A stretch of 64,000 nucleotides of DNA from Polytrichum commune (lineage: Eukaryota; Streptophyta; Polytrichopsida; Polytrichales; Polytrichaceae): assembly GCA_950295325.1 (NCBI GenBank), contig OX485807.1:19935666-19999665 (forward strand), in the 5' to 3' direction. Position numbers and translations under genes: made by a program. The notes beneath the pieces are model-generated. The model did not search any database. It was given only the letters and a program-made list of their open reading frames with translations, and was not told the origin of the DNA. This document shows, in pieces, positions 6,901-64,000 of the stretch; the first letter of the stretch is position 1, and each line of letters starts with the position of its first letter.

Positions 6901-6991
6901 TTATCAATACAAATAGTGTCCTCAAAGTGGTTCAAAATTGAAATACATGAACTACCCATATTGTGGGCACTGCAACACATGAGATCACACG
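3941..6991. other. AT-rich spacer, no gene recognised
   Basis: Contains only short frames (up to about 107 codons) with no motifs, no splice-compatible chain and no clear repeat. The first few hundred bases are presumably the 3' end of the NPH3 transcript. Confidence 0.5.
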
Positions 6992-7770
6992 ATGCTTTCA
7001 AATCAAAGAAACATGGTCAGAATGCTCATTTGTGTCTTGTGTGTTCTGATGCTTATAATTTTCAGGCCTCTACAGGTAAGACTCATGCACTAGGAGAAGC
7101 TAGGGGTGTTGATATATACATCTTTAATTCGTTGGCGTTGTATCCTAACATGAACACACTTGGAATGTTTACATAATATTAGTGTCTGCGGAGCTTTTAG
7201 TGGGGCCAAGAGATCCCATGCACTTTATTCGTGAATTGACAAGTTGAATCCTGATCTATAATAAGGCTATGTCCAAAGATAGGTAGCAATAACTTGTCGA
7301 CTAATGAGAGCCCATGCCACTTGACTATACTTGGTATTCACATTGCATGTAACCCAAGGATGTTGAATCTTGGATTTATTCTTGAAGCCAGAATAGAAAG
7401 AGGATATCCTATACAGAATGCTTAAGAATGCCATGTTGTTAATTTTATGTCTGATATATGGAATTGGCAGGGAATTAATGCGGTTGGCGTGACCCTGCCA
7501 CCAAGTGTTGGGTGTTGTGATCAAGAGCAGAATCTTGTGTCGTGCTGCTTAGAAGATGCCTCCCGTAGATGTTGTGAAGCATTCCCACCCACATGTTGCG
7601 GACTCACGCCTCCCTACTACATGACTTGTTGTTCTATCCGATCGGCAAACAACCGAAGCGACCTATGTTGTCCATTCAGTAACCCGCTCGCATGTTGCGA
7701 TTTACTCCCACCGCTTCTTGAATCTTGTTGCGGCTCACAAACCGGCTTGGTGTGTTGTCCACGAGTATAG
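6992..7770 (+). CDS. Small secreted protein with nine Cys-Cys pairs
   Basis: Two exons fit: 6992-7075 (or from ATG 7013) and 7471-7770, joined in phase 0 across a 395-base intron with donor CAG|gtaaga and acceptor ttggcag. Exon 1 encodes a short start with an Arg (MVR), then a hydrophobic run (MLICVLCVLMLIIF) that looks like a signal peptide. Exon 2 encodes 99 residues with 18 cysteines, every one in an adjacent Cys-Cys pair. The nine pairs are spaced 10, 9, 8, 11, 13, 9, 11 and 9 residues apart, with Pro-rich spacers (LPP, FPP, TPP). I do not recognise the family. The regular spacing and lack of lone cysteines argue for a real disulfide-rich extracellular protein. Three in-frame ATGs (6992, 7013, 7022) leave the start open; 7013 gives the most typical signal peptide. 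Function unknown. Confidence 0.6.
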
Positions 7771-8218
7771 TTATTTGTTATTACATTCTTCAAAGATGTT
7801 TTGATAACATTCTTAAGTAGCCTATTCAGGTTCTAATCTAATTGGAACAATTCTTCAGTAATCCAGGTAATCTAGGAACGATTTTATTTCGGATGCACCT
7901 CTTCGATTGAATGTTGGTTAGTTTTTGGAAGGAGGATTTTATGTATGAAGATAGGCAACAATGAGGTGTCAACTTGTAAGAGTGTACCTCTTGACTATGC
8001 TCAGCATTCATGCATGTACTCAAGGACCTTCATTGTCGAAAATTTATTCTTGACACATGTTTGAGAATGCTATGGTGGGCAACCCTGAGAATCCAATTTT
8101 GCACATCAAATTTAAGTTTCTCAATGTACAGCTGTGCAAATTCAGTGGCCTACAATCCTAAATTGCTAAAGAATAGGGGGACCAATTACGATCAAAAAAT
8201 CTGAAGTTTCCTCAGGAA
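7771..8218. other. Spacer between convergent genes
   Basis: About 450 bases between the stop codons of the Cys-Cys gene (+) and the hydrolase gene (-); probably holds both 3' untranslated regions. No other structure was seen. Confidence 0.5.
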
Positions 8219-23612: not shown

Positions 23613-26100
23613 GTCAGAGAGGCTCACCTTCTGTAGCTCCCTCTTAATTTATATTTGAGCAAGCCCTACTTCTGTTCACTTCCTGACATTAGCTCCCATC
23701 ATCTCATGCGCATCAAGGAAACTAGCCTTACAAGCTCTTCAATAATCTTGGAAGCAGATGAGTATTGTAGCGAAATGTTGTCAAGATGTGCAACCTTGAA
23801 GTGCTTAGTTGCCCATAAAGTTGCACTCCAACCAATTTCATTCTTTAAATCAATGTTGGATCAACATAAAACATTTGAAGTGATGTTGAATTAGCTGTTG
23901 GGCAAGTTTTGGAACACCCCTGTGAAGACATCGAGCCGTGAATGGTCTGTAATAAGATTGAGTCAACATTACATGTTGACCCCTGACGGATGTGTAGTTT
24001 GGACTCTAGACGAATTTTGCACTAGCTGTGAGGAACAAATATGGTAAATTTTAATCCTTTTGGAGGTAGGGAAGAGATTCTCAGAGTATTCAAACTTGGG
24101 ACAGCTGTAGACATCTAAGAATGTGTATACTTTGTGTGCAGTGTCTTGGATACATTTATTGCTTCAGCAAATTACCAAATTTTGTGCCACCCAGGCTTCT
24201 CCCACTTGTCTGGTGTTTTTCCACCATCTGTGGTTGAGGTATTTTTATACAGAATGAACACCTGAAGGATCCGTATCAATGGCTTGGTGCGTAATGCCTC
24301 ACTTGTGCAATGCGCATGAAAAATTGATTGCTTGCAATTATCTCTACCATCATGTAGAAGTAATTCAATAACTCTGTTTCTCTATTCAACTGCTTTTGAT
24401 GACTTTTTGCTCTATGATGGATGGAATATTAGAAAAAACAAAATGCCTTTTGGTAGAGATTCAACGTTGAAGTTCTGTTTAGTTCGTCTGAACATCAATA
24501 AGCCCATTGCATTATGTTTGGAGGAACGTTAGCTTTCATTTTAGACATGCATTTTCTTAGTTGTGGCAAAGTCTAGAGTTCTGGGTGGGGTAGCTCTTGG
24601 GCTTATTTTCATGTAAGCCCTTATCTGAGATCTGCAAGAATGTCAGCGGGTTGAATTTAAAATTGATCATGATGACAACTTGGGAATAATTCAAGAATTA
24701 ATCAGGATTGAAGATGAGGTGGTTATTGCATCTTTTGAATAGCACATCACTTATATTCCATAGTATTATGGCAGTTTGAAGTTTCAACACTTGCATTTCA
24801 AATTTGTGCCACACCAACATTTGAAGATCCTTAATTCCTCATTTTACATGGAACCTTGTTGGCCTCGTAACTTGCACTTCATTGACAATCTTGATTATAG
24901 TAGGGGCTTGTACTATGTGTTGATTAGAATTGGTGATCTTTAATGGCCTTTTAAAATCAAGTAATCTACATATTTATATGGCGGTAAAGAAAATAATGAT
25001 CGAATCTTTTACTACAGTATATGGATAATGTGAAGGTAATCTTTGCTTTTTATACTTTTTGAAGAACTTTTTTTGTGGCAATTTACTCTAGTTTCATGAG
25101 CATGAATGCAATATATGCAACTAAAAACCTTATCAACTTGATCGTGCATCTTTATTTAATCCAAAGAGTGTTGTAATCTTCAATTTTTAAAGACATTCTA
25201 GGTAATTTTATACCTCTCATCTTCATTGCATCCAAAGTCAATGTCAATTGAACTAAGCACAAGGATGACAATATTGGGTTGATAGCCAAGACAAAATAGG
25301 AGTATAATTATTAACTAAAATCATGAATTTGTACATTGAGAATTGTAACTTGCAAGATTTTGAAAGGGAGATTGAAAAGAGTGTTGATTCCTAGGACTTG
25401 ACGACTTGCATTTGGGTGACCATCCACTTTCAGCACCGAGTGGCTTATAAGTCAATGTGGAGAAGCCTATGGATTACACCGAGTTGATAACTTATTTTTC
25501 ATTAACTACAAATATTATAAAAGTAGAGTTTTTATTCTTGTATATAATCTAGAACTCCAATTCTTATCTCGGGGGAGCAAGGTGTAGTTACTAATGTTGT
25601 GCACTTGCTCATGTTATGAATGAAGCACTGAAGTATATACTATACTTACGTAGTTTTAAGTGTGTTGAATTTGTCTCTAGGAACGTTATTAAATGTTATA
25701 GTTTTGGGGTTTTGGAGTATGTTGGGAAAATCTTGAATTAAGCATAATAGCCCCTATCTAGATACTCAAAAAGTGCATGTACATACGAAATTAAAAAAAA
25801 AGGTGCTCTTGTCGTGTTTCACATGTTGCTAATAAGAAAGCACTTGGGGCCAAGGCTAATTAAATTTATATGTTTGCATCGATTATTGGCTACTTTAATG
25901 ACAATTTGTATGTACCTATTTCAATTTATATTTTCATTGTTAATTGTGGAGATTTTAGGTGGTTGTCAGTATGACTTTATGGTCCATGGATGTTTGCAGA
26001 TGGAGTGACCACTTTCATATGCTTGGACTACGTAGATTATCTCTTCTTTGGATATTTGCCGTTGATCGAGACAATTTAGGCTTCCCGCAAAAATTTCATC
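23613..26100. other. AT-rich spacer and promoter side of the PK-NBS-LRR gene
   Basis: Only short frames were found. The last few hundred bases must hold the promoter and leader of the kinase-NBS-LRR gene. No clear TATA element or other regulatory site could be assigned. Confidence 0.45.
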
Positions 26101-29100
26101 ATGGCGGAGCTTTTACAATTGGTTTTTGAGCAACTATCAAGAGTTTGGGAATTCATTGTCACTTGCTTTATGATGTTCTGGACATATCGGCAACGAGGAA
26201 CCATTTACAAATATGACATTGGAGGTGTATTGCAATGGCAGAAGGAAGAAATAAGTAGGCTTGAAGAGATTTCAAATGGGAATGAAGTATTGAATAAGAA
26301 GCAATGTAAACATCTTCTCACCAAGCTTAACCAAGTCGTAGAATGTGTTGGTAAGATGATCACATTGAGTAGTGAGGTCCAAGAGTTCGGTGTTGCACTT
26401 GAGGAGCTATGTTGCATTACACAAAAATTGGGAGTTGTGATCAGTGAATGCGGAAATCAAAATCGGAGTCAAGCAATTGTTTTGCAAATAAATAACAAGG
26501 AGGCTTTCCGAGAAATTGTGTCCGATTTGAGGTGTTGTTGGGATGTGATTTGTGAGATGCATTCAACAAGCCATCCAGGGTCGCATTTTGACATGTTTAT
26601 CATTGATATAGACATGCCCACCTTGAAAGAAATTGAGGATGACGAAAAAGTTCTTCAAGAAAGTCTCAAAGATGGTAGCAAGTGTGAATGGAACGAACAT
26701 TTACGGCAAAGATTGGGGGATTTGCAACTAGAAGGCGGAGAACTTGATGGTGTGGAGGTTCCAACTGTTATCGATTCATTGAAACCAAAACTTCTTAAAC
26801 AAGTTGGGAAAGGATCATATGGTGTTGTGTTTGAATCAATATGGTTGGGATTTAAATGTGCAACAAAGATTTTGCCAACCTCAGATGGAATTGAAAATCT
26901 CCGCAAAGAGGTTGGTATTTTGGCCGGCTTGAGCCATCCAAATCTCATCAAATTCATTTATTGTGGAGTTGGTCGGAGCATAGACGAGTTATGTTCTTGG
27001 ACTCTCAAAGTTTTACGGAAATGCAAAGGAGGAAATGGCAAAACTCTTGACAATTTGTATTTAGTGATGGAGTTCATGGACATGAGCTTGAGTGGCATGT
27101 TGGAGAAGCAACCTAAACCATTACCATATCTTCTTGCAATTGATATCATGCATCAAATTGCAAGTGGTGTGTGTTATCTTCATGACATGCATGTTGCCCA
27201 TCTTGATTTGAAGCCGGACAATGTGCTCATGAAACCCAATTCCATTACTGGAGGAAAATTGAATTCTAGGCGATATTCGGTCAAGTTGGTTGATTATGGT
27301 ACTTCCAACATTGAGGTTCCAAGCAAAGTTTCCAAGAACCAAACTTGCCATCGTGTTGGTACACCTAAGTATATGGCACCGGAGATTATTCAACAAAACC
27401 TTCAATCTCATGCAAGTCTATTTCAAGTTGATGTATGGTCCTTTGCTATGACATGTTCAGAGATCTTGTCACAAATTACTCCATTTGGGAGCAATTTTGT
27501 GCAAACCAAAGACATTTTGAAAAAAATAAAGGAATTTGAGAGGCCAGAGTTGCCAATGAATTGTGAAGAGCTTACGAGGTTGATTGAGGAATGTTGGGTG
27601 GAGGATCCTTCACAAAGGCCGACATTTTTTGAAATTTGTCAGAAATTGATCGATTTGAAGAAAATGTTCTTGAGAGGAACATATTCGGCAAGCCTACGTC
27701 CCAAGTTTGAAAAGGATGGAGCCTCACTCCAAAAGAAGTCAAGAATCGAGAAGGCAAAGGAGGTCAAGGAGAATCATGTTATAAAGGTATGAACCATTTT
27801 GGTGTTAAAATACTTAAGCAACTATATATATATGTATGTATGTAGCTTGTCACTTTTATTGATTAGATTAAATATAGGTCTTTGAGGGTGTAATTTTGAA
27901 TGAGAATTATGTACTTATTGCATGCGTTGTTTATGTAGGTGAATGAGACAACAATGCAAGTGAACAACATGGTGGTTGGTGTTGAACGAAACCTTACAAA
28001 AGTAAAAAATCGCCTCAAGGAAGTGAGGATTTTGGGTGTCATTGGCATGGGTGGAATTGGGAAAACTACATTGGCAAATGTCATATTTCATGAATTGAAG
28101 TCCACATATAATGCATCATATTTTGCCAAGGACTTGAAGAATGAAAGTGATTCACTTGGAATTCTATGTGACATGTTAACAAACTTTGGAGAAGATCATG
28201 AAAACTTGCCAACAAATTTAGTGGATGCACAAAACATGTTGAAGCAATTTATGGTTGATAAGAAGGTTCTCATAATATTGGATGATATAAAGCATCGAGA
28301 TCAAATAGATAATCTTCTCCATCCGGATATTTTGAGGGACAACACAGGCGTCACATTGATTATAACAACCCGCCATTGGGATAAGATTAAAGATCTCGTC
28401 GGGGAGAATGGCAAAATAGAGGTTGACAAATTGGATGAAAATGCAGCAAAAAAGCTTTTTATCCTTCATTCATGTGGGCCCGGAGGTTCTTTACCAATTG
28501 AATTTCGTGATATAGGAGGAAGAATTGTGGAAGCTTGCAATGGCTTGCCTTTAAGCCTAGGAGTATTGGGTGCATTTTTGCGGGATAAAAGGAGGTTGCG
28601 AAGTTGGGAGCGAGCATTACGAAGAATGAAAAGGGGAAGATGTTTGGATGGTAACAAAGAATATGAAGACACGAAGCTTTGGAGCACATTGAGGATAAGC
28701 TTTGACGGATTGGAAATGGTTGAAAGAAATATGTTTTTGGACATAGCGTGCTTCTTTTGCAAGGACGTGTGGCCTAAAGGCATGTCAATAGGTAGAGCCT
28801 TGTACGTGTGGACCATGAATGATATTCCCCCGATGAAATCATTCAATATATTGATAGAGCGGTCATTGGTAAATGTTGACATATATGGAAACATAGAGAT
28901 GCACGACCATCTTCGTGACATGGGACGGATGATCGTGCAAAGGGATGAAGAATACTTGGGCACTCGAGTTTGGGGCGTTGATTTCATTCCATCGACTCAA
29001 TCTACAAGCAAGGTGCGAATTGTAATGAACGATTTGTATGACAAAGTTTGTTCCATGTTGTCTTTGTAAAGTCTATATAAACAAAACGTGTAATTAGATT

Positions 29101-30744
29101 TGGATTATATTGGGCCGTTAGTTTCATGTTTATAACGGACAAGATATTAATAATCAATTCAGATTCTTGTATAGTCTTTGCAATGACTCATTTTATTCCA
29201 TCTCTCTGCAAAATAATATATGATACTATTGATACTCTATTTGTTTTTTGATATAATTTTTACAGCTTGCTAAGCAGGGCACGAAGAAAGTTGAAGGTAT
29301 ATTGTACAAAAGATCGCCGTGCCATTTACAAGGTCAGAGTTTTTGTTTAGACTTAGATCTAAGCAATCTTCGCCTACTGATAATTCATGATCATACCAAC
29401 AATAATTCAACCGACTTCCAACTATTCAAAGCTCTTCTTTCATACAATCAAGAACATTTATGTCAATTGCAAGCCATAATTATAAATGGTAACTTTCAAC
29501 AGTTACCAAACCAATTGTGGGAAATGCATTCATTGAAAAGCTTTGATATCAAAGGATTGAACATGCTCAAAGAATTGCATGAGGGACTTGGAAACCTCAC
29601 TTCATTGACGGCCCTTAATTTGTCGCAATGTTGGGAATTGACAACATTACCCGAGGGACTTGGAAACCTCACTTCTTTGACGGCCCTTAATTTATCGCAT
29701 TGCTGGGGATTGACAACATTACCCGAGGGACTTGGAAACCTCACTTCTTTGACAAAGCTTCAATTGGTGGGATGTTCAAGCTTGACAACATTACCCGAGG
29801 GACTTGGAAACCTCACTTCTTTGACAAAGCTTCAATTGGAGGGATGTTCAAGCTTGACAACATTACCCGAGGGACTTGGAAACCTCACTTCTTTGACAAA
29901 GCTTCAATTGGAGGGATGTTCAAGCTTGACAACATTACCTGAGGGACTTGGAAACCTCACTTCTTCGACAAACCTTACATTGGAGGGATGTTCAAGCTTG
30001 ACAACATTACCCGAGGGACTTGGAAACCTCACTTCTTTGACGGCCCTTAATTTGTCGAAATGTTGGGAATTGACAACATTACCCGAGGGACTTGGAAACC
30101 TCACTTCTTTGACGGCCCTTAATTTGTCGTATTGCTGGGAATTGACAACATTACCCGAGGGACTTGGAAACCTCACTTCTTTGACAAAGCTTAATTTGTC
30201 GTATTGCTGGGGATTGACAACATTACCCGAGGGACTTGGAAACCTCACTTCTTTGACAAAGCTTCATTTGGAGGGATGTTCAAGCTTGACAACATTATCC
30301 GAGGGACTTGGAAACCTCACTTCTTTGACGATGCTTAACTTGTGCAGTTGTTCAAGCTTGACAACATTACCAGAGGGACTTGGAAACCTCACTTCTTTGA
30401 CGGCCATTGATTTGTCGAGATGTCTGGAATTGACAACATTACCCGAGGGACTTGGAAACCTCACTTCTTTGACGGCCCTTAATTTGTCGCATTGCAGGGG
30501 ATTGACAACATTACCCGAGGGACTTGGAAACCTCACTTCTTTGACAAAGCTTCACTTGGAGGGATGTTCAAGCTTGACAACATTACCTGAGGGACTTGGA
30601 AACCGCACTTCTTTGACAGAGCTTCAATTGGAGAGATGTTCAAGGATGACAACATTACCCGAGGGACTTGAAAACCTCACTTCTTTGACGATGCTTAACG
30701 TGTGGTGTTGTTCATGCTTGACAACATTACCCGAGGGACTTTGA
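26101..30744 (+). CDS. Kinase-NBS-LRR (PK-NBS-LRR) resistance-like protein, LRR array cut by a stop
   Basis: Three exons join in phase 0: 26101-27786, 27939-29012 and 29266-30744, giving 1412 residues before TGA. Residues 1 to about 220 are helical with no named domain. A protein kinase follows: Gly loop G236-K-G-S-Y-G241, Lys256, H-L-D369-L-K-P-D-N374 and D398-Y-G, so the catalytic residues are kept although HRD is HLD and DFG is DYG. Exon 2 is an NB-ARC of TIR-NBS style: P-loop GMGGIGKTT (Lys about 604), kinase-2 VLIILDD, LIITTR, GLPLSLG, MFLDIACFF and MHDHLRDMGR. Exon 3 has a linker (KQGTKKVEGI) and 24-residue LRRs. This domain order is a known moss NLR class. In NLRs, NB-ARC is the nucleotide switch and LRRs aid recognition, so cytoplasmic immune sensing is likely. 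The TGA at 30742-30744 interrupts repeat 17. Confidence 0.9.
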
Positions 30745-31455
30745 AACCTCACTTCTTTGACGATGCTTAACTTGTGGTGTTGTTCATGCTTGACAACATT
30801 GCCCGAGGGACTTGGAAACGTCAATTCTCTGACAAACCTTACATTGGAGGGATGTTCAAGCTTGACAATATTACCAGAGGGACTTGGAAACCTCACTTTT
30901 TTGACGGAGCTTAATTTGACGAGATGTTCAAGATTGACAACATTATCCGAGGGATTTGGAAACCTCACTTCTTTCACAAACCTTACATTGGAGGGATGTT
31001 CAAGGTTGACAACATTACCCGAGGGACTTGGAAACCTCACTTCGTTGAGGACACTTAAATTGGGGACTTGTTCAAGCTTGACAACATTACCCGAGGGACT
31101 TGGGAACCGCACTTCTTTGACCAACCTTGCATTGGGGGGTTGTTCAAGCTTGACAACATTACCCGAGGGACTTGGAAACCTCACTTCTTTGAGAATTCTT
31201 TATTTAAGGTCTTGTTCAAGCTTGACAATATTACCCGAGGGACTTGGAAACCTCACTTCTTTGACGAACCTTACATTGGAGGGATGTTCAAGCTTGACAA
31301 CATTACCCGAGGGACTTGGAAACCTCACTTCTTTGACGAAGCTTAATTTGGAGGGTTGTTCAAGCTTGACAACATTACCAGAGGGCCTTGGAAACCTCAC
31401 TTCTTTGACAAACCTTACATCGGAGGGATGTTCAAGCTTGACAACATTACCCGAG
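29584..31455 (+). repeat. 26-unit, 72-bp perfect-phase tandem array encoding LRRs
   Basis: Twenty-six units of exactly 72 bases (24 codons, core LTTLPEGLGNLTSLT) run without any indel. Variable positions define two main unit types: ALNLSxCWE/CWG (units 1, 2, 7, 8, 9) and KLQLEGCSS/NLTLEGCSS types. Blocks of like units suggest expansion by unequal crossing-over or gene conversion. Confidence 0.95.
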
Positions 31456-31560
31456 GGACTTCGAATCCTCATTTCTTCTTACATTTCTTCTTACATAGTT
31501 CCAATTTTGTGGAATGCAAAAGTGCAAATGATTCATACTCCATATGCTAGAAGTTTGTAA
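30745..31560 (+). pseudogene. Downstream LRR half, in frame but past the premature stop
   Basis: After the TGA in unit 17, the same frame stays open for 271 codons through units 17-26 and a unique tail ending at a TAA at 31558-31560. The stop differs from the unit consensus GGA codon by one base (G to T at 30742). The intact downstream frame implies the break is recent, an assembly error, or tolerated because a shorter protein is made. Confidence 0.8.
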
Positions 31561-57596: not shown

Positions 57597-60500
57597 TCAA
57601 TTTAAATCAACACCAGAAGCCAGGAACTGGCCCACATCAATACCAAGAGAGTTACTTCTCTCAAGGCTGAGCTCAGAGCGCAGCAGACCGTTGTCCACAG
57701 CACACGACCCAGAACCCGTATGACCATAACCTGGATACCACACACTCTGTGAAGATGTTCTATTGGCCTGTAACCCCAAATCAAAGGAGTCCTTACGCCC
57801 TGAAGTCCCTCCACTAGGCTCTTTGTTGAGAAGAGCCATAATGGCCCCTCCATGCACACGTCCCTCGGGTAGAGCTGACATAAGACCACCCCCGTGTACA
57901 CGACCTTCAGACAGGGAGGGCATATGGCCACCTCCATGAACTCTCCCCTCCGGCAGTGACAACGAACCTATGTTGAACACTCCTTCATCAGCATTTGAGA
58001 GCTGTGGCCGTGGCGGCCGCCCATTTTTGGGCTTATTGGCAGAGGCATTCATGTCTTTCTTTTGCATCGAGAGGGGAACCAACACCTGCAACCAGAATAC
58101 AGAAGTTACAACAAACTGAAGAAAGCATACATCAAGTAGTGAATCCAGAGAGCAATTACAGTACAGGAATGTGAAATTCTGTGGCAGGAGTATTGAACAT
58201 ACTGGTCACTGCACTACTTATAATATCACATTAGAGTACATCATCCAGGGAGTTCTCGTTTAACTGAAGAATAGATGGAAATACATAAGAATTATCTCGG
58301 GAATACACCGTGACAATTTCCAGCCTTGCTGAGAACAATGTCCCATCAAACCTCATAAAATTCAAAGGGACCCAGAATATAGTTACAACTCCATACCTAG
58401 ACACCCATCTTTATTCTCTCAAATACAATCATAAGCTGTGAGGCAAGTTGTGCTTGAATAGAGTAACAGAGCGTATTGCTGAATCAAGTATGTACGTTTC
58501 CTTGTTTGCAACATTCAGTAGGATTCAGATACTAATCCAACAACTAAAGAGAGGTTAGAAACATTGGATGTGAATCATGTTCCAGATAATTTAGTGAGGT
58601 GCTGAGAAGTGAAGATATTGACATTGCTGTTGCTAGGAATAACCAGGTCTATGAGGAGTGGCTGGACAGTCTGTAAGGTCTGGAGCTAACTCCCCTTAAA
58701 CTTAGAAACACACCCAGAAACGCACCTTGAACCCATTTGCAAATGTAGGAAACGTATAAATCTAACAAGGAAGAAAAAAAAGACAAAAAAACTCTTCAGC
58801 TTATTACTTCTTGCAGAAAGACTGCAAATAATGCTCACCTGTGGTGGAAGCAGCGGTTGATGATAAGGAAGTGTTGTAGATGGCAATTGTTGAGGTGAGG
58901 TCATTGTCACACTTGCACTTAGATCAAGTCCTGCTGTTGAAACTGCAATACCATCTACACCAGGAGCTTTGGAGAAATTGAAATTGTTTTTATCTCCATT
59001 GGCATTACCACCATGAGCAATGCCCAGAAGCCCCCCATGGTAAGGACCATGAACAGAACCACCATGCATAGAACCTGAGGCTCCACTATTCATTGAAGGG
59101 TTTGTACTCTCCATGCTTGGAGAGTACCCCTGTGAACTCATTGACATGGAACTCTCCGATAACCCACCCCTTCTTGACCATATTTCTATTGGTTCACGCA
59201 CAGCATTTAGAGGTCGATCAGGACCTGTCGAAACCCACAAAGCAATGAGGGCGACGTACATTAATACCTGGACCCCATTAAATCAATGTATAATAGATTT
59301 GTTATTGAAAATGCGAGTTGATAATGGAAATTGAAGACAAAAATCTGAAGTGAGCGGTACCTGACAAATCTTGGCCCTCAGGTGCCCCATTTCTCATTTG
59401 ATTTTCAGAACCACTGCCAGCAGGTCTGCTGCTGCCACTTGCTGCTGTTATTGCACCAACACTTGTAGCAGCAAGTCCACTTGGCCGGCTCTGTCCTGAG
59501 CCAGTCACCAATCCCCTAAAGAGCCCAGGAGCTAGGCCTGGGGTCACTGTGCTTCCCACAGTGCCACCTCCATGGACCCGTCGATCTGAAACAAGTGCAC
59601 TGTGGGCAGCACAAAGGCCAGTCTTACCTCTCGCAAATTTATCACAAGGAGTTCCTGGAACTCGGTCACCATTCTTGTCTCTAATAAGGTCCACAAAGTT
59701 GGAACCCTCGACTCCCCATTGGCACCGTTTTCCCCCTCCATGAGCTTTACAGAAGTCTGTACTACCCTGTGCACTTTTGCCACAACCCTCAACTTTACAA
59801 CGTTTACCACCACCATGTCGCACACAGAAATCTGTCCGGCCACGGGCACTTTTGCCACAGCCTTCAACAGCACAGCGTTTCCCACCTCCATGGGCAACAC
59901 AGTAGAGAGTGCCTCCATGGACACTTTTGGTGCAGATTCCACCACCATCAAAGGCACATCGTTTTCCACCTCCATGCCCTTTACAAAGCGGTGTGCTTCC
60001 CTCAGCACCTTTGTTGCAGTCTTGGATGATGCAGCGTTTGCCTCCTCCATGAGCTTTGCAAAACATTGTGCTACCTTGAGCACCTTTCGTGCAACCAGAA
60101 AACTGACATCTGGAAATCAAAGGACCAATGATCAATACCAATCCTTACTGTAGAGGAAACACCAGACTGACAGTTGCAAAACGACCAGTTGTACATGATG
60201 CTCCATGTAGCTAAAACATGTCTCCACTGAATAGACAATTGTTCTGCGCAATTCTCTGGAATGGCTCAAGCCAACAACAGGCTGCCTCCATAATATGCTT
60301 ACAAACAGGAGAATCACAAGAAATGGGTCTGTAAAAGCATAACGCACTGCATAGAGGACACTGACAATAATACAATCATATTTAGAGATCAAGGGAATTC
60401 AGGTTCATAACATGAAAATGTTCTGATAGAAATTAGACAAAATTCCAAATATACAATAAACTTCACAACTTCTTGAAGCACCAAGGAAAGTAATCATCAG

Positions 60501-62663
60501 TTTCAATAACAATATGAATAGTATTTATTAGAAACATACAGTACATCTCCGGTTTTTAAACAAAGGCGTTAATTTCAGTGTACCTACACCTTGCTCCTGT
60601 AGAATCGACAATGCCTATGTGCAATCATCAACAAAAACTAAGAAGTATACAGGAGAAATTCCTGACCTGCGGCCACCACCATGTGAGATACAGAGACCAG
60701 AATATCCTTCTGCACTTTTAGTACATCCCTCAACCTGGCAACGCTTCCCGCCTCCATGGCGAATACATAAGCCTGAACGGCCCCGAGCAGCCTTGTCACA
60801 GCCTTCGTGGCTGCACCGCCGCCCACCCCCATGACCTATACAATAGTCAGTTTTCCCTTCAGCACTTTTTGTGCATCCTAGATTCTGGCAACGTCTGCCA
60901 CCACCATGTGCTTTACAATAGACAGTACGCCCCTCGGCCCCTTTATTGCAGCCATGCTTTTGGCACCTGCACTTGAGGCAATCAGAGTGAAATTTAATTT
61001 CATTTATATTAGATTTCTGAGCTTGACAGCATGGCAACGGAGAATGCAGAAAATGTCTGAAGACTTGAAACTAGATATTCCATTCTCTAAAGATATCATA
61101 AGAAATTTGCAAACTATGACCTGTAAACAGGATCTTGTCACAGAGGCTATTTCACTACAGGAAGTAGCATGTACCCACCATGCGTATGCAGAGTGGTTGC
61201 TTAACCCTAACTAGTGACCAGACAGGTAGATTGAGACAGAGACATGCCAGAGATCAACACTGCCTGGTCATTTACATGATGCAAAAACATGGAAAATGGA
61301 TGTACTAAGCACACTCTACATCAAATGGAATTTATCTGTCCATTACACATGAACAGAGAAATTCCTATAATTTGTCCAAGCTAGAAAACCCTGAATGAAA
61401 AGAATGTCAACACTCAGTACTAATGACACAAACAAAGATGGACATCAAAATACCAGAAGAGTCAAAGTACTACTGAACTCTTAAAAATTGACTATAAGCA
61501 TTGAACGAGATCAGCGAGTAAGTTTCACTGTTAAGTGTATACACTGACCTCCTCCCTCCCCCATGTGCGATGCAAAGGCCCGATGCACCTCTTGGACCTT
61601 TTCCACATCCTCTGAATTTACAAACTTTCGGGGCTCGTTCAGAATTACCAGAAGCTCCACTGGTGGAAGTCGTTCCACCACTGGTAGATGCACGTAGGCC
61701 CATGAGGAGATCATGCTCGACAAGACCTTCTTCCATATGTTTTTTGCCATATGGATCTCTGTGGTGTCGATCAGAAGCCGCTGTGGGATAGATTTGGCTA
61801 CCCATCAACAGAGATGGCATGTAGCCACCACAAGATAATCGAGCTGTAGTGGACCCTTCATCCACTACAGGGACAAGTCCACCTTTTCCAGGAAAATCAT
61901 GTCTATCGACAGATTTATCCCCATGGCCTAATCCTGACAGCAGGCCACCACCCCTGTACTCCCGACCATTTGGGGACTCAAACACCTGAACATAGCCACT
62001 ATATGAAGGAGCTAATCCCAGATGCGAGCCTGCATGCTTTTCAATGTGGTTATTGAAGAGGCGATCATGTCCAGACCGGCCCTGTCCTCCACTACCCTCC
62101 CCTCGTGCAAGTGGATCTCCCGAACTACCCAAACGAAGAAGAACACCAGGTTCGGCTGCATTCCGGTCCAGACCATCTGCCATAAGCCGCTCTGCAGCAG
62201 TTTGACCGCTGTGAACTGTCTCATCCCCGCCATTGCTCCCACAAAGATTAGCACTTCCAGAGAGATTCCCTGAATAGTTTCCGGCCTCTGACTGGCCCAG
62301 ACCAAGAACCACATCAGAATCCTCGTCTACACTGCTTGCATCATCCCCGTGACCTAGCTCCAGCACAATTCTTGACTCCATGCCATCATAAGCATGACAG
62401 GTTGGAGGCACCCCGTGGTGATCAGGCCTCTTCCGTTTCAACCCCTTGCAGGAATTCTGACTCCGACTTCCATGCCCATTGGGTTCCATCATCCCCGGAA
62501 GATCAACGTCAGTTTGCATATTGTCAGTGTTGGCTGGCTCTGGATCCTGGTTCCAACTCTTCAATCTGAGGATTGTCTCGTAGTTTTGGTGCTCTCTTGC
62601 ACCAAAACCGCTATTTAGTAACACACCCCCAATCGAAAGAGTAGTCATCGGCGAATTAGCCAT
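57597..62663 (-). CDS. WRKY19-like zinc-finger repeat protein (no WRKY domain)
   Basis: Five exons join in phase into 1012 residues: 61549-62663, 60667-60966, 59361-60109, 58839-59224 and 57597-58085. Residues about 348-600 are ten fingers of about 25 residues, CX4C-X10-CX2H followed by GGG(R/K)R. Typical cores are GCTKSAEG and CKAHGGGKRC. Finger 8 is 3 residues longer, and a degenerate eleventh follows. The C-terminal exon has three EGRVHGG repeats. The N-terminal 340 residues are disordered-looking, with LxL-type hydrophobic patches (ILRLKSW, IVLELGHG, VLLRLGSS) and a basic KGLKRKRP motif that may be a nuclear signal. Plant proteins of this kind are often labelled 'probable WRKY transcription factor 19' because they share these fingers, but there is no WRKYGQK motif here. 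A nuclear regulatory role is inferred only. Exon junctions at the fingers share one phase. Confidence 0.9.
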
Positions 62664-64000
62664 GTGACGAATGTGTGGAGTGCTTCAAAAACTGGAACAA
62701 AAGCGGAGACGAATTCTGTGCAGTGTGCCCCACAATGAAACCGCAACCGGTAAAGACCATGGACGCTCTGCTCACATGCAAATGTAAGATCAGGAAGAAT
62801 TCTGGTCGAACGTTAACCAGATACAAGCCACAACAACCCCTCAGCTGTCCTTTTCTAATCTGAGATCATTTTAGAATGACTGCAAACAGAGTATCACCTA
62901 TTCCAGACAACACGTACACATTTTGCTTGTTCAAACTGTCTTCCTTGTGTTATCCCAATAAAGAATCTTCCATAAATTCCCCTCATGTATCTATATACAC
63001 TCCATCCAGACCGCATGGATCGAAGAAGAATACTGCCCCAAATGCCTACCTAAATGGATGTGATAAGGCTTACTCCTAAACTGCTTGAAATGCTAACTAA
63101 GATTGCAAGGCTAAATGTTCAAAAGCGAAACAAGAGGTTTCAGACCGCACAAAGGGTACCCAAAAGCAACTCAAAAGCGCTCAGCAACTCCGCTTTACAC
63201 GATCACAAAAAAGATCGATAAATCCTCTCTAACTCGACGTCGAGGTTAGATCTAAATTAGCCGAGTAATCACATGTTCCAAGTTACAAAATACATGTAGA
63301 AACAATACAAACAGGAGCCCCCTTGGAAAAGTTCAAATATTGACGTATTCAAAACTCCTAATCTTCTGAGGAGTTAGGATGGAGAAATGACATATCCCAT
63401 CTTCCCTCGTGCATGATCGTCCATCATAATCTTTGTCACTTCATCAACAAGGCTTAAAAACACACGAAAAGGCGCCACCAAATCTTGTTATGATTATGCT
63501 CACCTTAAAACACCCGGCTCGGTCTCAAAATGTCGCGAACGCCAACCGCAAATTAACCCCGATTAAGCACACCTGCTTCCATTGCAAAGATATATCACTA
63601 TATACAGGCCAGAGTTGATGATGATTCCCGTAGACTAACCGAGCGGCTACGGCTCTTCCATGGCTGTTTCCTTGTCTGTAGAGGAGATCCGCAGTCCTTC
63701 CCAGTTGTAACCAGCTAGCGACGCTTCAATGAAAGTTCAAACTTAGATTTCTAACTCCACAAACGTTTGCCTTGGTCGAAGCACCCGAAGATGTCCTGCC
63801 GCTGGTCATTACACAACCTGCCGCAAACTGCGCTAAGAAGGAAAATACCGAATCCCAACACACGAGATCCTCGAATTCGACGCAACAAAATACCAAAAAA
63901 CTTAAAGACACCTCATATGCTAGATCCGTCAAGGACAGACATCGACAGCTTTCGTAGAGGAAGGAAATACAAAGACACAAATAGAGGGATTCAGCCTAGG
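62664..64000. other. Upstream region of the WRKY19-like gene
   Basis: Presumably promoter and leader of the minus-strand gene. No start-site element can be assigned. Short frames on both strands have no motif; a leader intron is possible but not shown. Confidence 0.45.

What the first reader, a model, noticed from the sequence alone, without database searches (positions are those of the whole stretch)
6992..7770. Secreted protein built only of Cys-Cys pairs
All 18 cysteines of the mature region are in nine adjacent pairs at near-regular 8-13 residue spacing, preceded by a hydrophobic leader on a separate exon with matching phase and strong splice sites. I know no plant family with this pattern. 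Candidate roles include wall or surface protein, antimicrobial peptide-like protein or metal binding.
Basis: partly seen in the sequence, partly recalled or inferred. Interest (0 to 1): 0.75.

Follow-up and report, generated by a model that had tools for sequence, protein, structure and literature searches.

The report
Secreted all-paired-cysteine protein, probably moss
A small two-exon gene, probably from a moss, appears to make a secreted protein whose cysteines all stand in nine neighbouring pairs; it matched none of the protein families we could search, so it may be a new disulfide-built extracellular protein, but its use is unknown.

Summary
Exon 1 (6992-7075) and exon 2 (7471-7770) join in phase 0 into 127 aa: a hydrophobic leader, then 18 cysteines, all in nine isolated CC pairs (chance about 1e-8 given 18 Cys in 99 residues; spacing more even than random, 1.4e-4). 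The leader exon is the only one of its kind found on either strand of the window. Exon 2 has 51% GC against 36-38% around it. 7471 is the only in-frame acceptor in the stretch scanned. A real, probably secreted, protein is likely.

No convincing relative was found in its own genome, Pfam, NCBIfam, PHROGs, PDB sequences, or the prokaryote, viral, phage and plasmid collections. No plant collection and no RNA could be searched, so 'orphan' and expression are untested. Granulin, the nearest look-alike, fails. I read it as a disulfide-stapled apoplastic protein of three rough '[PP loop]-CC-strand pair-CC' units; the repetition is only suggestive and the models are low-confidence. Acidic pI (4.5) argues against a cationic antimicrobial, the leader against metal binding.

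The parts
6992..7075 (+). Exon 1: hydrophobic leader MLSNQRNMVRMLICVLCVLMLIIFRPLQ; in-frame TGA at 6980-6982 bounds it upstream; a second in-frame ATG at 7013 has the better start context (AAACATGG, recalled consensus)
7076..7470 (+). Intron, phase 0, donor CAG|GTAAGA, acceptor TTGGCAG|G; read through unspliced it stops at TAG 7091-7093; 7471 is the only in-frame acceptor in the stretch scanned (7101-7512)
7241..7435 (+). Interspersed repeat of about 195 bp occupying half of the intron; 43 matches listed in G000 (itself included) from 40 of 596 candidates scored
7471..7770 (+). Exon 2: signal-peptide end (GINA|VGV, read by eye) and mature domain with nine CC pairs, stop TAG
7489..7548 (+). Unit 1: VTLPPSVG-CC1-DQEQNLVS-CC2
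   Evidence: internal similarity is weak
7600..7671 (+). Unit 2: GLTPPYYMT-CC5-SIRSANNRSDL-CC6, with the only N-glycosylation sequon (NRS)
7699..7758 (+). Unit 3: DLLPPLLES-CC8-GSQTGLV-CC9
7926..8053 (+). Second, more diverged copy of the intron's repeat, same orientation, 155 nt beyond the stop codon, recognised through its matches to L007-L009; probably not part of the gene
   Evidence: a direct blastn of the intron copy against the window at E 0.01 listed only itself

Best explanation
It is a real two-exon gene for a small secreted protein (127 aa; about 95 aa, 10.1 kDa, pI 4.5 if cleaved at GINA|VGV). The leader sends it to the ER, where the 18 cysteines oxidise to as many as nine disulfides. 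The chain is three rough units, each a proline-proline loop followed by CC, a short strand pair and CC; the other CC pairs (3, 4 and 7) lie between units. In each pair the two adjacent cysteines would point to opposite faces of a strand, so that successive hairpins are stapled into a compact ladder, as in granulin but without single cysteines. Its most likely job is as a stable, protease- and drying-resistant protein of the apoplast or wall surface that exposes the PP loops for binding. SHOWN: reading frame, splice phase, Cys arrangement, no hit in the searched libraries. INFERRED: transcription, secretion, disulfides, ladder, role. My confidence is about 0.85 for a real secreted Cys-rich protein, 0.5 for the ladder and 0.35 for the wall/surface role; the figure below is for the statement without the precise role.
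For: Gene anatomy and phase. Leader exon unique in the window on both strands; resampled expectation 0.1 per 64 kb. Exon 2 GC 0.51 against 0.36-0.38 in intron and flanks. Both TGT and TGC are used in the pairs and the loops differ from each other in sequence, so it is not a TGT microsatellite. Pairing P about 1e-8, even spacing P 1.4e-4. PP stands exactly three residues after CC in 3 of 8 inter-pair loops, P 3.5e-4, or 0.02 after allowing for any dipeptide. AF2 models, though weak (best-model pLDDT 47.6 whole, 61.6 for the last 58 aa), both put strand pairs at CC5-CC6 and CC8-CC9 and a helix at CC7; the whole model adds a strand pair at CC1-CC2 and a helix at CC3.
Against: No transcript and no plant homologue could be tested. 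The models are low-confidence; for the 58-aa piece the other four models have pLDDT 43.8-51.0, and Foldseek gave no match at E <= 0.001 (0 of 29 and 0 of 5 listed). Internal repetition is not significant by overall loop similarity (period 3 P 0.089, period 4 P 0.24, others higher); MAFFT on my first segmentation chose another register; one of the three PP-offset loops (EAFPPT) lies outside my three units. PP loops being more hydrophobic is only a trend (P 0.06). Exon 1 has no GC step (0.369). A single copy without paralogues could also be a young or decaying ORF.
Confidence: 0.6

Rival explanations
1. Defence protein acting by its loops: a protease-inhibitor-like or toxin-like scaffold in which rigid Cys-bounded PP loops (CC-EAFPPT-CC, CC-GLTPPYYMT-CC, CC-DLLPPLLES-CC) are presented to a target, loosely as in Bowman-Birk loops.
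For: Three PP loops at a fixed offset between Cys pairs; small, probably secreted, Cys-rich.
Against: The Bowman-Birk loop motif (C-T-x-S-x-P-P-x-C, recalled) is not present; no Pfam hit to E 10. A survey placed Bowman-Birk inhibitors only in monocots and eudicots (PMC4189545, passages). Acidic pI argues against a membrane-lytic peptide.
Confidence: 0.25
2. A diverged granulin: an array of granulin half-modules that lost its single cysteines.
For: CC-x6..8-CC spacing and a CCP...CC[D/E] stretch look alike; the genome has two granulin domains over the curated cut-off.
Against: Best local alignments to those two domains score no better than the same CC scaffold with shuffled loops (P 0.69 and 0.35); no Pfam hit to E 10; no single Cys in exon 2. 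In plants the module is described as always linked to a cysteine protease (PMC4527844 passage), which this is not.
Confidence: 0.07
3. Cytosolic cysteine-rich or metal-binding protein: translation from the in-frame ATG at 7447 without exon 1 (MSDIWNWQ + exon 2), thiols free to bind metal.
For: An in-frame ATG exists 24 nt upstream of exon 2.
Against: It leaves the leader exon, unique in the window and in phase with the only in-frame acceptor, as coincidence; no CxC, CxxC or His; no Pfam hit.
Confidence: 0.07
4. A non-functional or very young ORF, untranscribed, with the CC pattern arising by chance from TGY-rich DNA.
For: No paralogue and no convincing relative found, and repeats on both sides of exon 2. 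TGY-rich composition alone can give many CC in 64 kb.
Against: All-paired Cys (1e-8), even spacing, GC step of exon 2, leader and splice phase all coincide.
Confidence: 0.1

Closest known systems
Granulin module (PF00396), including the C-terminal domain of RD21-like plant proteases
   Same: Several CC pairs 5-8 residues apart in a small secreted domain; stacked beta-hairpins stapled by disulfides is the fold I infer here
   Different: Granulins have 12 Cys, in plants two more, including single ones (PMC4527844 passages; single Cys also seen in the two domains of this genome). Here only pairs, nine in a row, and no profile or loop similarity
Bowman-Birk inhibitors
   Same: Small disulfide-rich protein with PP inside Cys-bounded loops (recalled)
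   Different: Reactive-loop motif absent, Cys pattern different, no profile hit; reported only from monocots and eudicots in one survey
Hydrophobins and nsLTPs (patterns recalled)
   Same: Secreted; contain CC pairs; surface role
   Different: Both have single Cys in a fixed eight-Cys pattern; none here. No Pfam hit
Keratin-associated proteins (recalled)
   Same: Cys-pair-rich, Pro-rich structural proteins
   Different: Animal, not secreted, CCxPxC-type tandem repeats; here variable 6-11 residue loops

Membership tests
Granulin (PF00396) | Match to the family profile | tested here: not met
   Pfam scan of the full protein lists 0 families to E 10 (HMMER's filters drop most matches above about 0.1)
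Granulin (PF00396) | 12 Cys (14 in plants), including single Cys beside the CC pairs | tested here: not met
   18 of 18 Cys of exon 2 from 7471 on are in pairs
Granulin (PF00396) | Loop sequence similarity beyond the Cys | tested here: not met
   Scores 62 and 68 against the two granulin domains of this genome; shuffled-loop means 65.6 and 65.2; P 0.69, 0.35 of 3000
Granulin (PF00396) | Stack of beta-hairpins | tested here: inconclusive
   Low-confidence models show strand pairs, but no granulin is named among the Foldseek matches listed
Bowman-Birk inhibitor | Reactive loop C-T-x-S-x-P-P-x-C (recalled) | tested here: not met
   Sequence read directly: PP loops are CC-x3-PP, without T-x-S
Metallothionein | CxC/CxxC clusters, cytosolic, reduced (recalled) | tested here: not met
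   No CxC or CxxC in exon 2; hydrophobic leader; redox state not testable
Hydrophobin / nsLTP | Eight-Cys pattern with single Cys (recalled) | tested here: not met
   No single Cys in exon 2; no Pfam hit
Secreted cysteine-rich protein (broad kind) | N-terminal hydrophobic leader | tested here: met
   12-residue Kyte-Doolittle maximum 3.67; no signal-peptide predictor was run
Secreted cysteine-rich protein (broad kind) | Disulfide-bonded and secreted in vivo | not testable with these tools
   Even number of Cys only

The most novel reading that the evidence does not exclude
A new protein class of bryophytes: an all-paired-cysteine ladder, built by repetition of a [PP loop]-CC-hairpin-CC unit without the single cysteines that granulins and other small disulfide-rich folds use, forming an extracellular, possibly surface-active coat or binding scaffold.
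Probability: 0.3. Interest if true: 0.65.

Novelty: new variant of a known kind. Interest (0 to 1): 0.42.

Why it matters
Secreted cysteine-rich proteins are usually sorted by their cysteine pattern. A pattern made only of adjacent pairs, nine in a row, matched none of the families searched here. If homologues keep it, it would be a new disulfide scaffold with a regular unit that could be extended or engineered, and its connectivity (up to nine disulfides among adjacent-Cys pairs) would be an informative oxidative-folding problem.

Tried and rejected
Homologues in the own genome by protein query: the locus itself plus weak matches. The best other match is L003, E 0.039 and 0.009: 13 of 22 residues identical around two CC pairs (SNPLVCCSFLSPILQSCC). 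In the 180-residue stretch of that frame it has only these two CC and many stops, so I judge it chance or at most a dead fragment; a real remote relation is not excluded. L002 (E 0.024) has one CC and three stops inside the match. L004, L005 and L014 (the same place as L004) were listed at E 1.3-8.2 and not pursued; L002-L005 hold no ORF with 3 or more CC. The one hit in prokaryote genomes, L012 (archaeal MAG; 81 stretches matched a pattern, 1 passed), rests on a GINAVGVT match, has a stop and no CC pairs in the aligned stretch, and was rejected. Viral contigs: 11 pattern stretches, 0 confirmed. Plasmids and phages: no match at E <= 1. Pfam, NCBIfam, PHROGs and PDB sequences: none to E 10; PADLOC not run.

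Internal duplication: a four-pair period was tried first and not supported (P 0.24); a three-pair period is only suggestive (0.089; PP offset 3.5e-4, corrected 0.02). Rfam: 0 families at gathering score in the window. Fold searches: nothing at E <= 0.001.

Seven looked for the protein or for like proteins (the last returned nothing); three were for context (46 Polytrichum genome, 48 PK-NBS-LRR, 49 Bowman-Birk). From titles and beginnings of abstracts I recognised no paper on an all-CC-pair plant protein. The library holds only open-licence papers and no preprints, and the lists were capped, so this does not show absence from print. Papers opened: PMC4527844 (passages), PMC4189545 (passages), PMC3352924 (abstract and section list).

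Full report
WHAT IS THERE. On the + strand, ATG 6992 opens a 28-codon exon (in-frame TGA at 6980-6982 just upstream) that ends CTACAG|GTAAGA at 7075. A 395-nt intron ends TTGGCAG| at 7470, and exon 2 runs from 7471 to the TAG at 7768-7770. The junction is phase 0. Read unspliced, the frame stops at 7091-7093. Among the AGs of the scanned stretch (7101-7512), 7471 is the only exon start that keeps exon 2 in frame without a stop. The 127-aa product is leader MLSNQRNMVRMLICVLCVLMLIIFRPLQ + GINA | VGVTLPPSVG-CC-DQEQNLVS-CC-LEDASRR-CC-EAFPPT-CC-GLTPPYYMT-CC-SIRSANNRSDL-CC-PFSNPLA-CC-DLLPPLLES-CC-GSQTGLV-CC-PRV. The cleavage point after GINA is my reading; no predictor was run.

IS IT MORE THAN CHANCE. 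18 of 18 Cys in exon 2 from 7471 on stand in nine isolated pairs; for 18 Cys in 99 residues that has probability 1.2e-8, and the spacing is more even than random placements (P 1.4e-4 of 200,000). With exon 2 masked the window's best ORF has 2 CC; 20 order-2 resamplings of the window reached at most 3. Resamplings of exon 2's own composition over 64 kb (20 of them) reached 4-9 CC per ORF, so TGY richness explains part of the count but not the all-paired, even arrangement. An exon of the type 'ATG, hydrophobic stretch, AGGTRAG' occurs at one donor on the + strand and none on the - strand of the window, also at the lenient hydropathy threshold of 2.0; 20 resampled forward strands gave a mean of 0.1 at threshold 2.8 and none in phase 0. 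Exon 2 GC is 0.51 against 0.36 (500 nt upstream), 0.38 (intron) and 0.36 (500 nt downstream); exon 1, at 0.37, shows no such step. I conclude that the gene model is very probably right, though no transcript was available.

RELATIVES. In its own genome (408 Mb, 64 contigs) protein queries returned the locus itself plus weak matches; the best, L003 at E 0.009, shares two CC pairs over 22 residues in a frame full of stops. The tool scored 5, 3 and 2 candidates and works exon by exon, so very diverged paralogues could be missed. Pfam, NCBIfam and PHROGs to E 10: 0 families each; HMMER's filters drop most matches above about 0.1. PDB sequences: 0, also with a profile of the three units. Prokaryote genomes: one hit, an artefact. 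Viral contigs: 0 of 11 pattern matches confirmed. Phages and plasmids: 0. Apart from Pfam and PDB none of these holds plants, so the decisive comparison, with other mosses, could not be made.

WHICH ORGANISM. Not named by the tools. The window carries a protein kinase ORF and an NB-ARC ORF, followed by ORFs that read as leucine-rich repeats by eye; PK-NBS-LRR is a class described from the moss Physcomitrella (PMC3352924 abstract).

INTERNAL ORDER. A three-pair period gives three units: VTLPPSVG-CC-x8-CC, GLTPPYYMT-CC-x11-CC, DLLPPLLES-CC-x7-CC (segments chosen by me, aligned). PP at exactly three residues after CC occurs in 3 of 8 inter-pair loops (P 3.5e-4; 0.02 when any dipeptide at any offset is allowed); one of these three loops, EAFPPT, lies outside my three units. 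Overall loop similarity at period 3 is not significant (P 0.089), nor at 4 (0.24), 1, 2 or 5, and MAFFT on my first segmentation chose another register. Two short DNA matches, 7569-7589/7692-7712 and 7584-7600/7683-7699, link parts of the exon. I call the repetition suggestive.

STRUCTURE. Single-sequence AF2 models are weak: best model 47.6 mean pLDDT for 99 aa and 61.6 for the last 58 aa, where the other four models lie at 43.8-51.0. Both best models place strand pairs at CC5-CC6 and CC8-CC9 and a helix at CC7; the full model adds a strand pair at CC1-CC2 and a helix at CC3. Foldseek: 0 of 29 and 0 of 5 listed matches at E <= 0.001. Hairpins with CC in their strands and disulfide staples between layers is therefore a hypothesis.

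HOW IT PROBABLY WORKS. Leader, ER oxidation, up to nine disulfides, export to the apoplast (one N-glycosylation sequon, NRS). Mature protein as I cut it: 95 aa, 10.1 kDa, pI 4.5, charge about -3.4 at pH 7, GRAVY +0.25, no Lys or His. Acidity argues against a cationic antimicrobial; the leader and the lack of His, CxC and CxxC argue against a metallothionein-like role. PP loops tend to be more hydrophobic than the other loops (means 0.22 and -0.70) but the permutation P is 0.06, so a surface-active role is only a lead. Most likely: a stable extracellular scaffold of wall or surface; second: a loop-presenting defence protein.

COMPARISON. Granulin is the nearest look-alike, and the genome has two granulin domains over the curated cut-off. 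Against them this protein aligns no better than its own CC scaffold with shuffled loops (P 0.69, 0.35), and it lacks the single Cys that they have. It may work like a granulin ladder; it is not shown to be one.

SURROUNDINGS. Half of the intron (7241-7435) is an interspersed repeat with 43 matches listed in the genome, itself included, from 40 of 596 candidates scored. A more diverged copy in the same orientation lies at 7926-8053, 155 nt beyond the stop; it shows through its matches to the same three loci and ungapped matches to the intron copy, while a direct blastn of the intron copy against the window at E 0.01 listed only itself. Neither covers an exon. None of the three fetched repeat copies (L007-L009) has an ORF like the CC array; the most CC seen in one is 3, in L008. 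Other copies were not fetched.

VERDICT. Real feature, probably a secreted disulfide-rich protein with a cysteine pattern not in the searched libraries; interest moderate because homologues and expression are untested.

Noticed in passing
window 7241-7435 and 7926-8053: Two same-orientation copies of a roughly 195-bp interspersed repeat flank exon 2, one inside the intron; 42 further matches of 74-83% identity to the intron copy were listed in the genome. Type not identified.
   Followed up: partly
window 26080-31560 (+): Protein kinase and NB-ARC ORFs (Pfam) followed by LRR-like ORFs (by eye), like the moss PK-NBS-LRR class; the LRR ORFs 29257-30744 and 30745-31560 are in one frame separated by a single in-frame TGA, so the gene may be truncated or a pseudogene.
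   Followed up: partly
window 58686-62684 (-): ORFs with repeated GGGKRC...GC.KSA zinc-finger-like units, resembling WRKY19-like proteins (name recalled, not searched).
   Followed up: no
L010, L011: Two granulin domains in the same genome, over the Pfam cut-off; L010's ORF begins with what reads by eye as a papain-like protease C-terminus, as in RD21-like proteases.
   Followed up: partly
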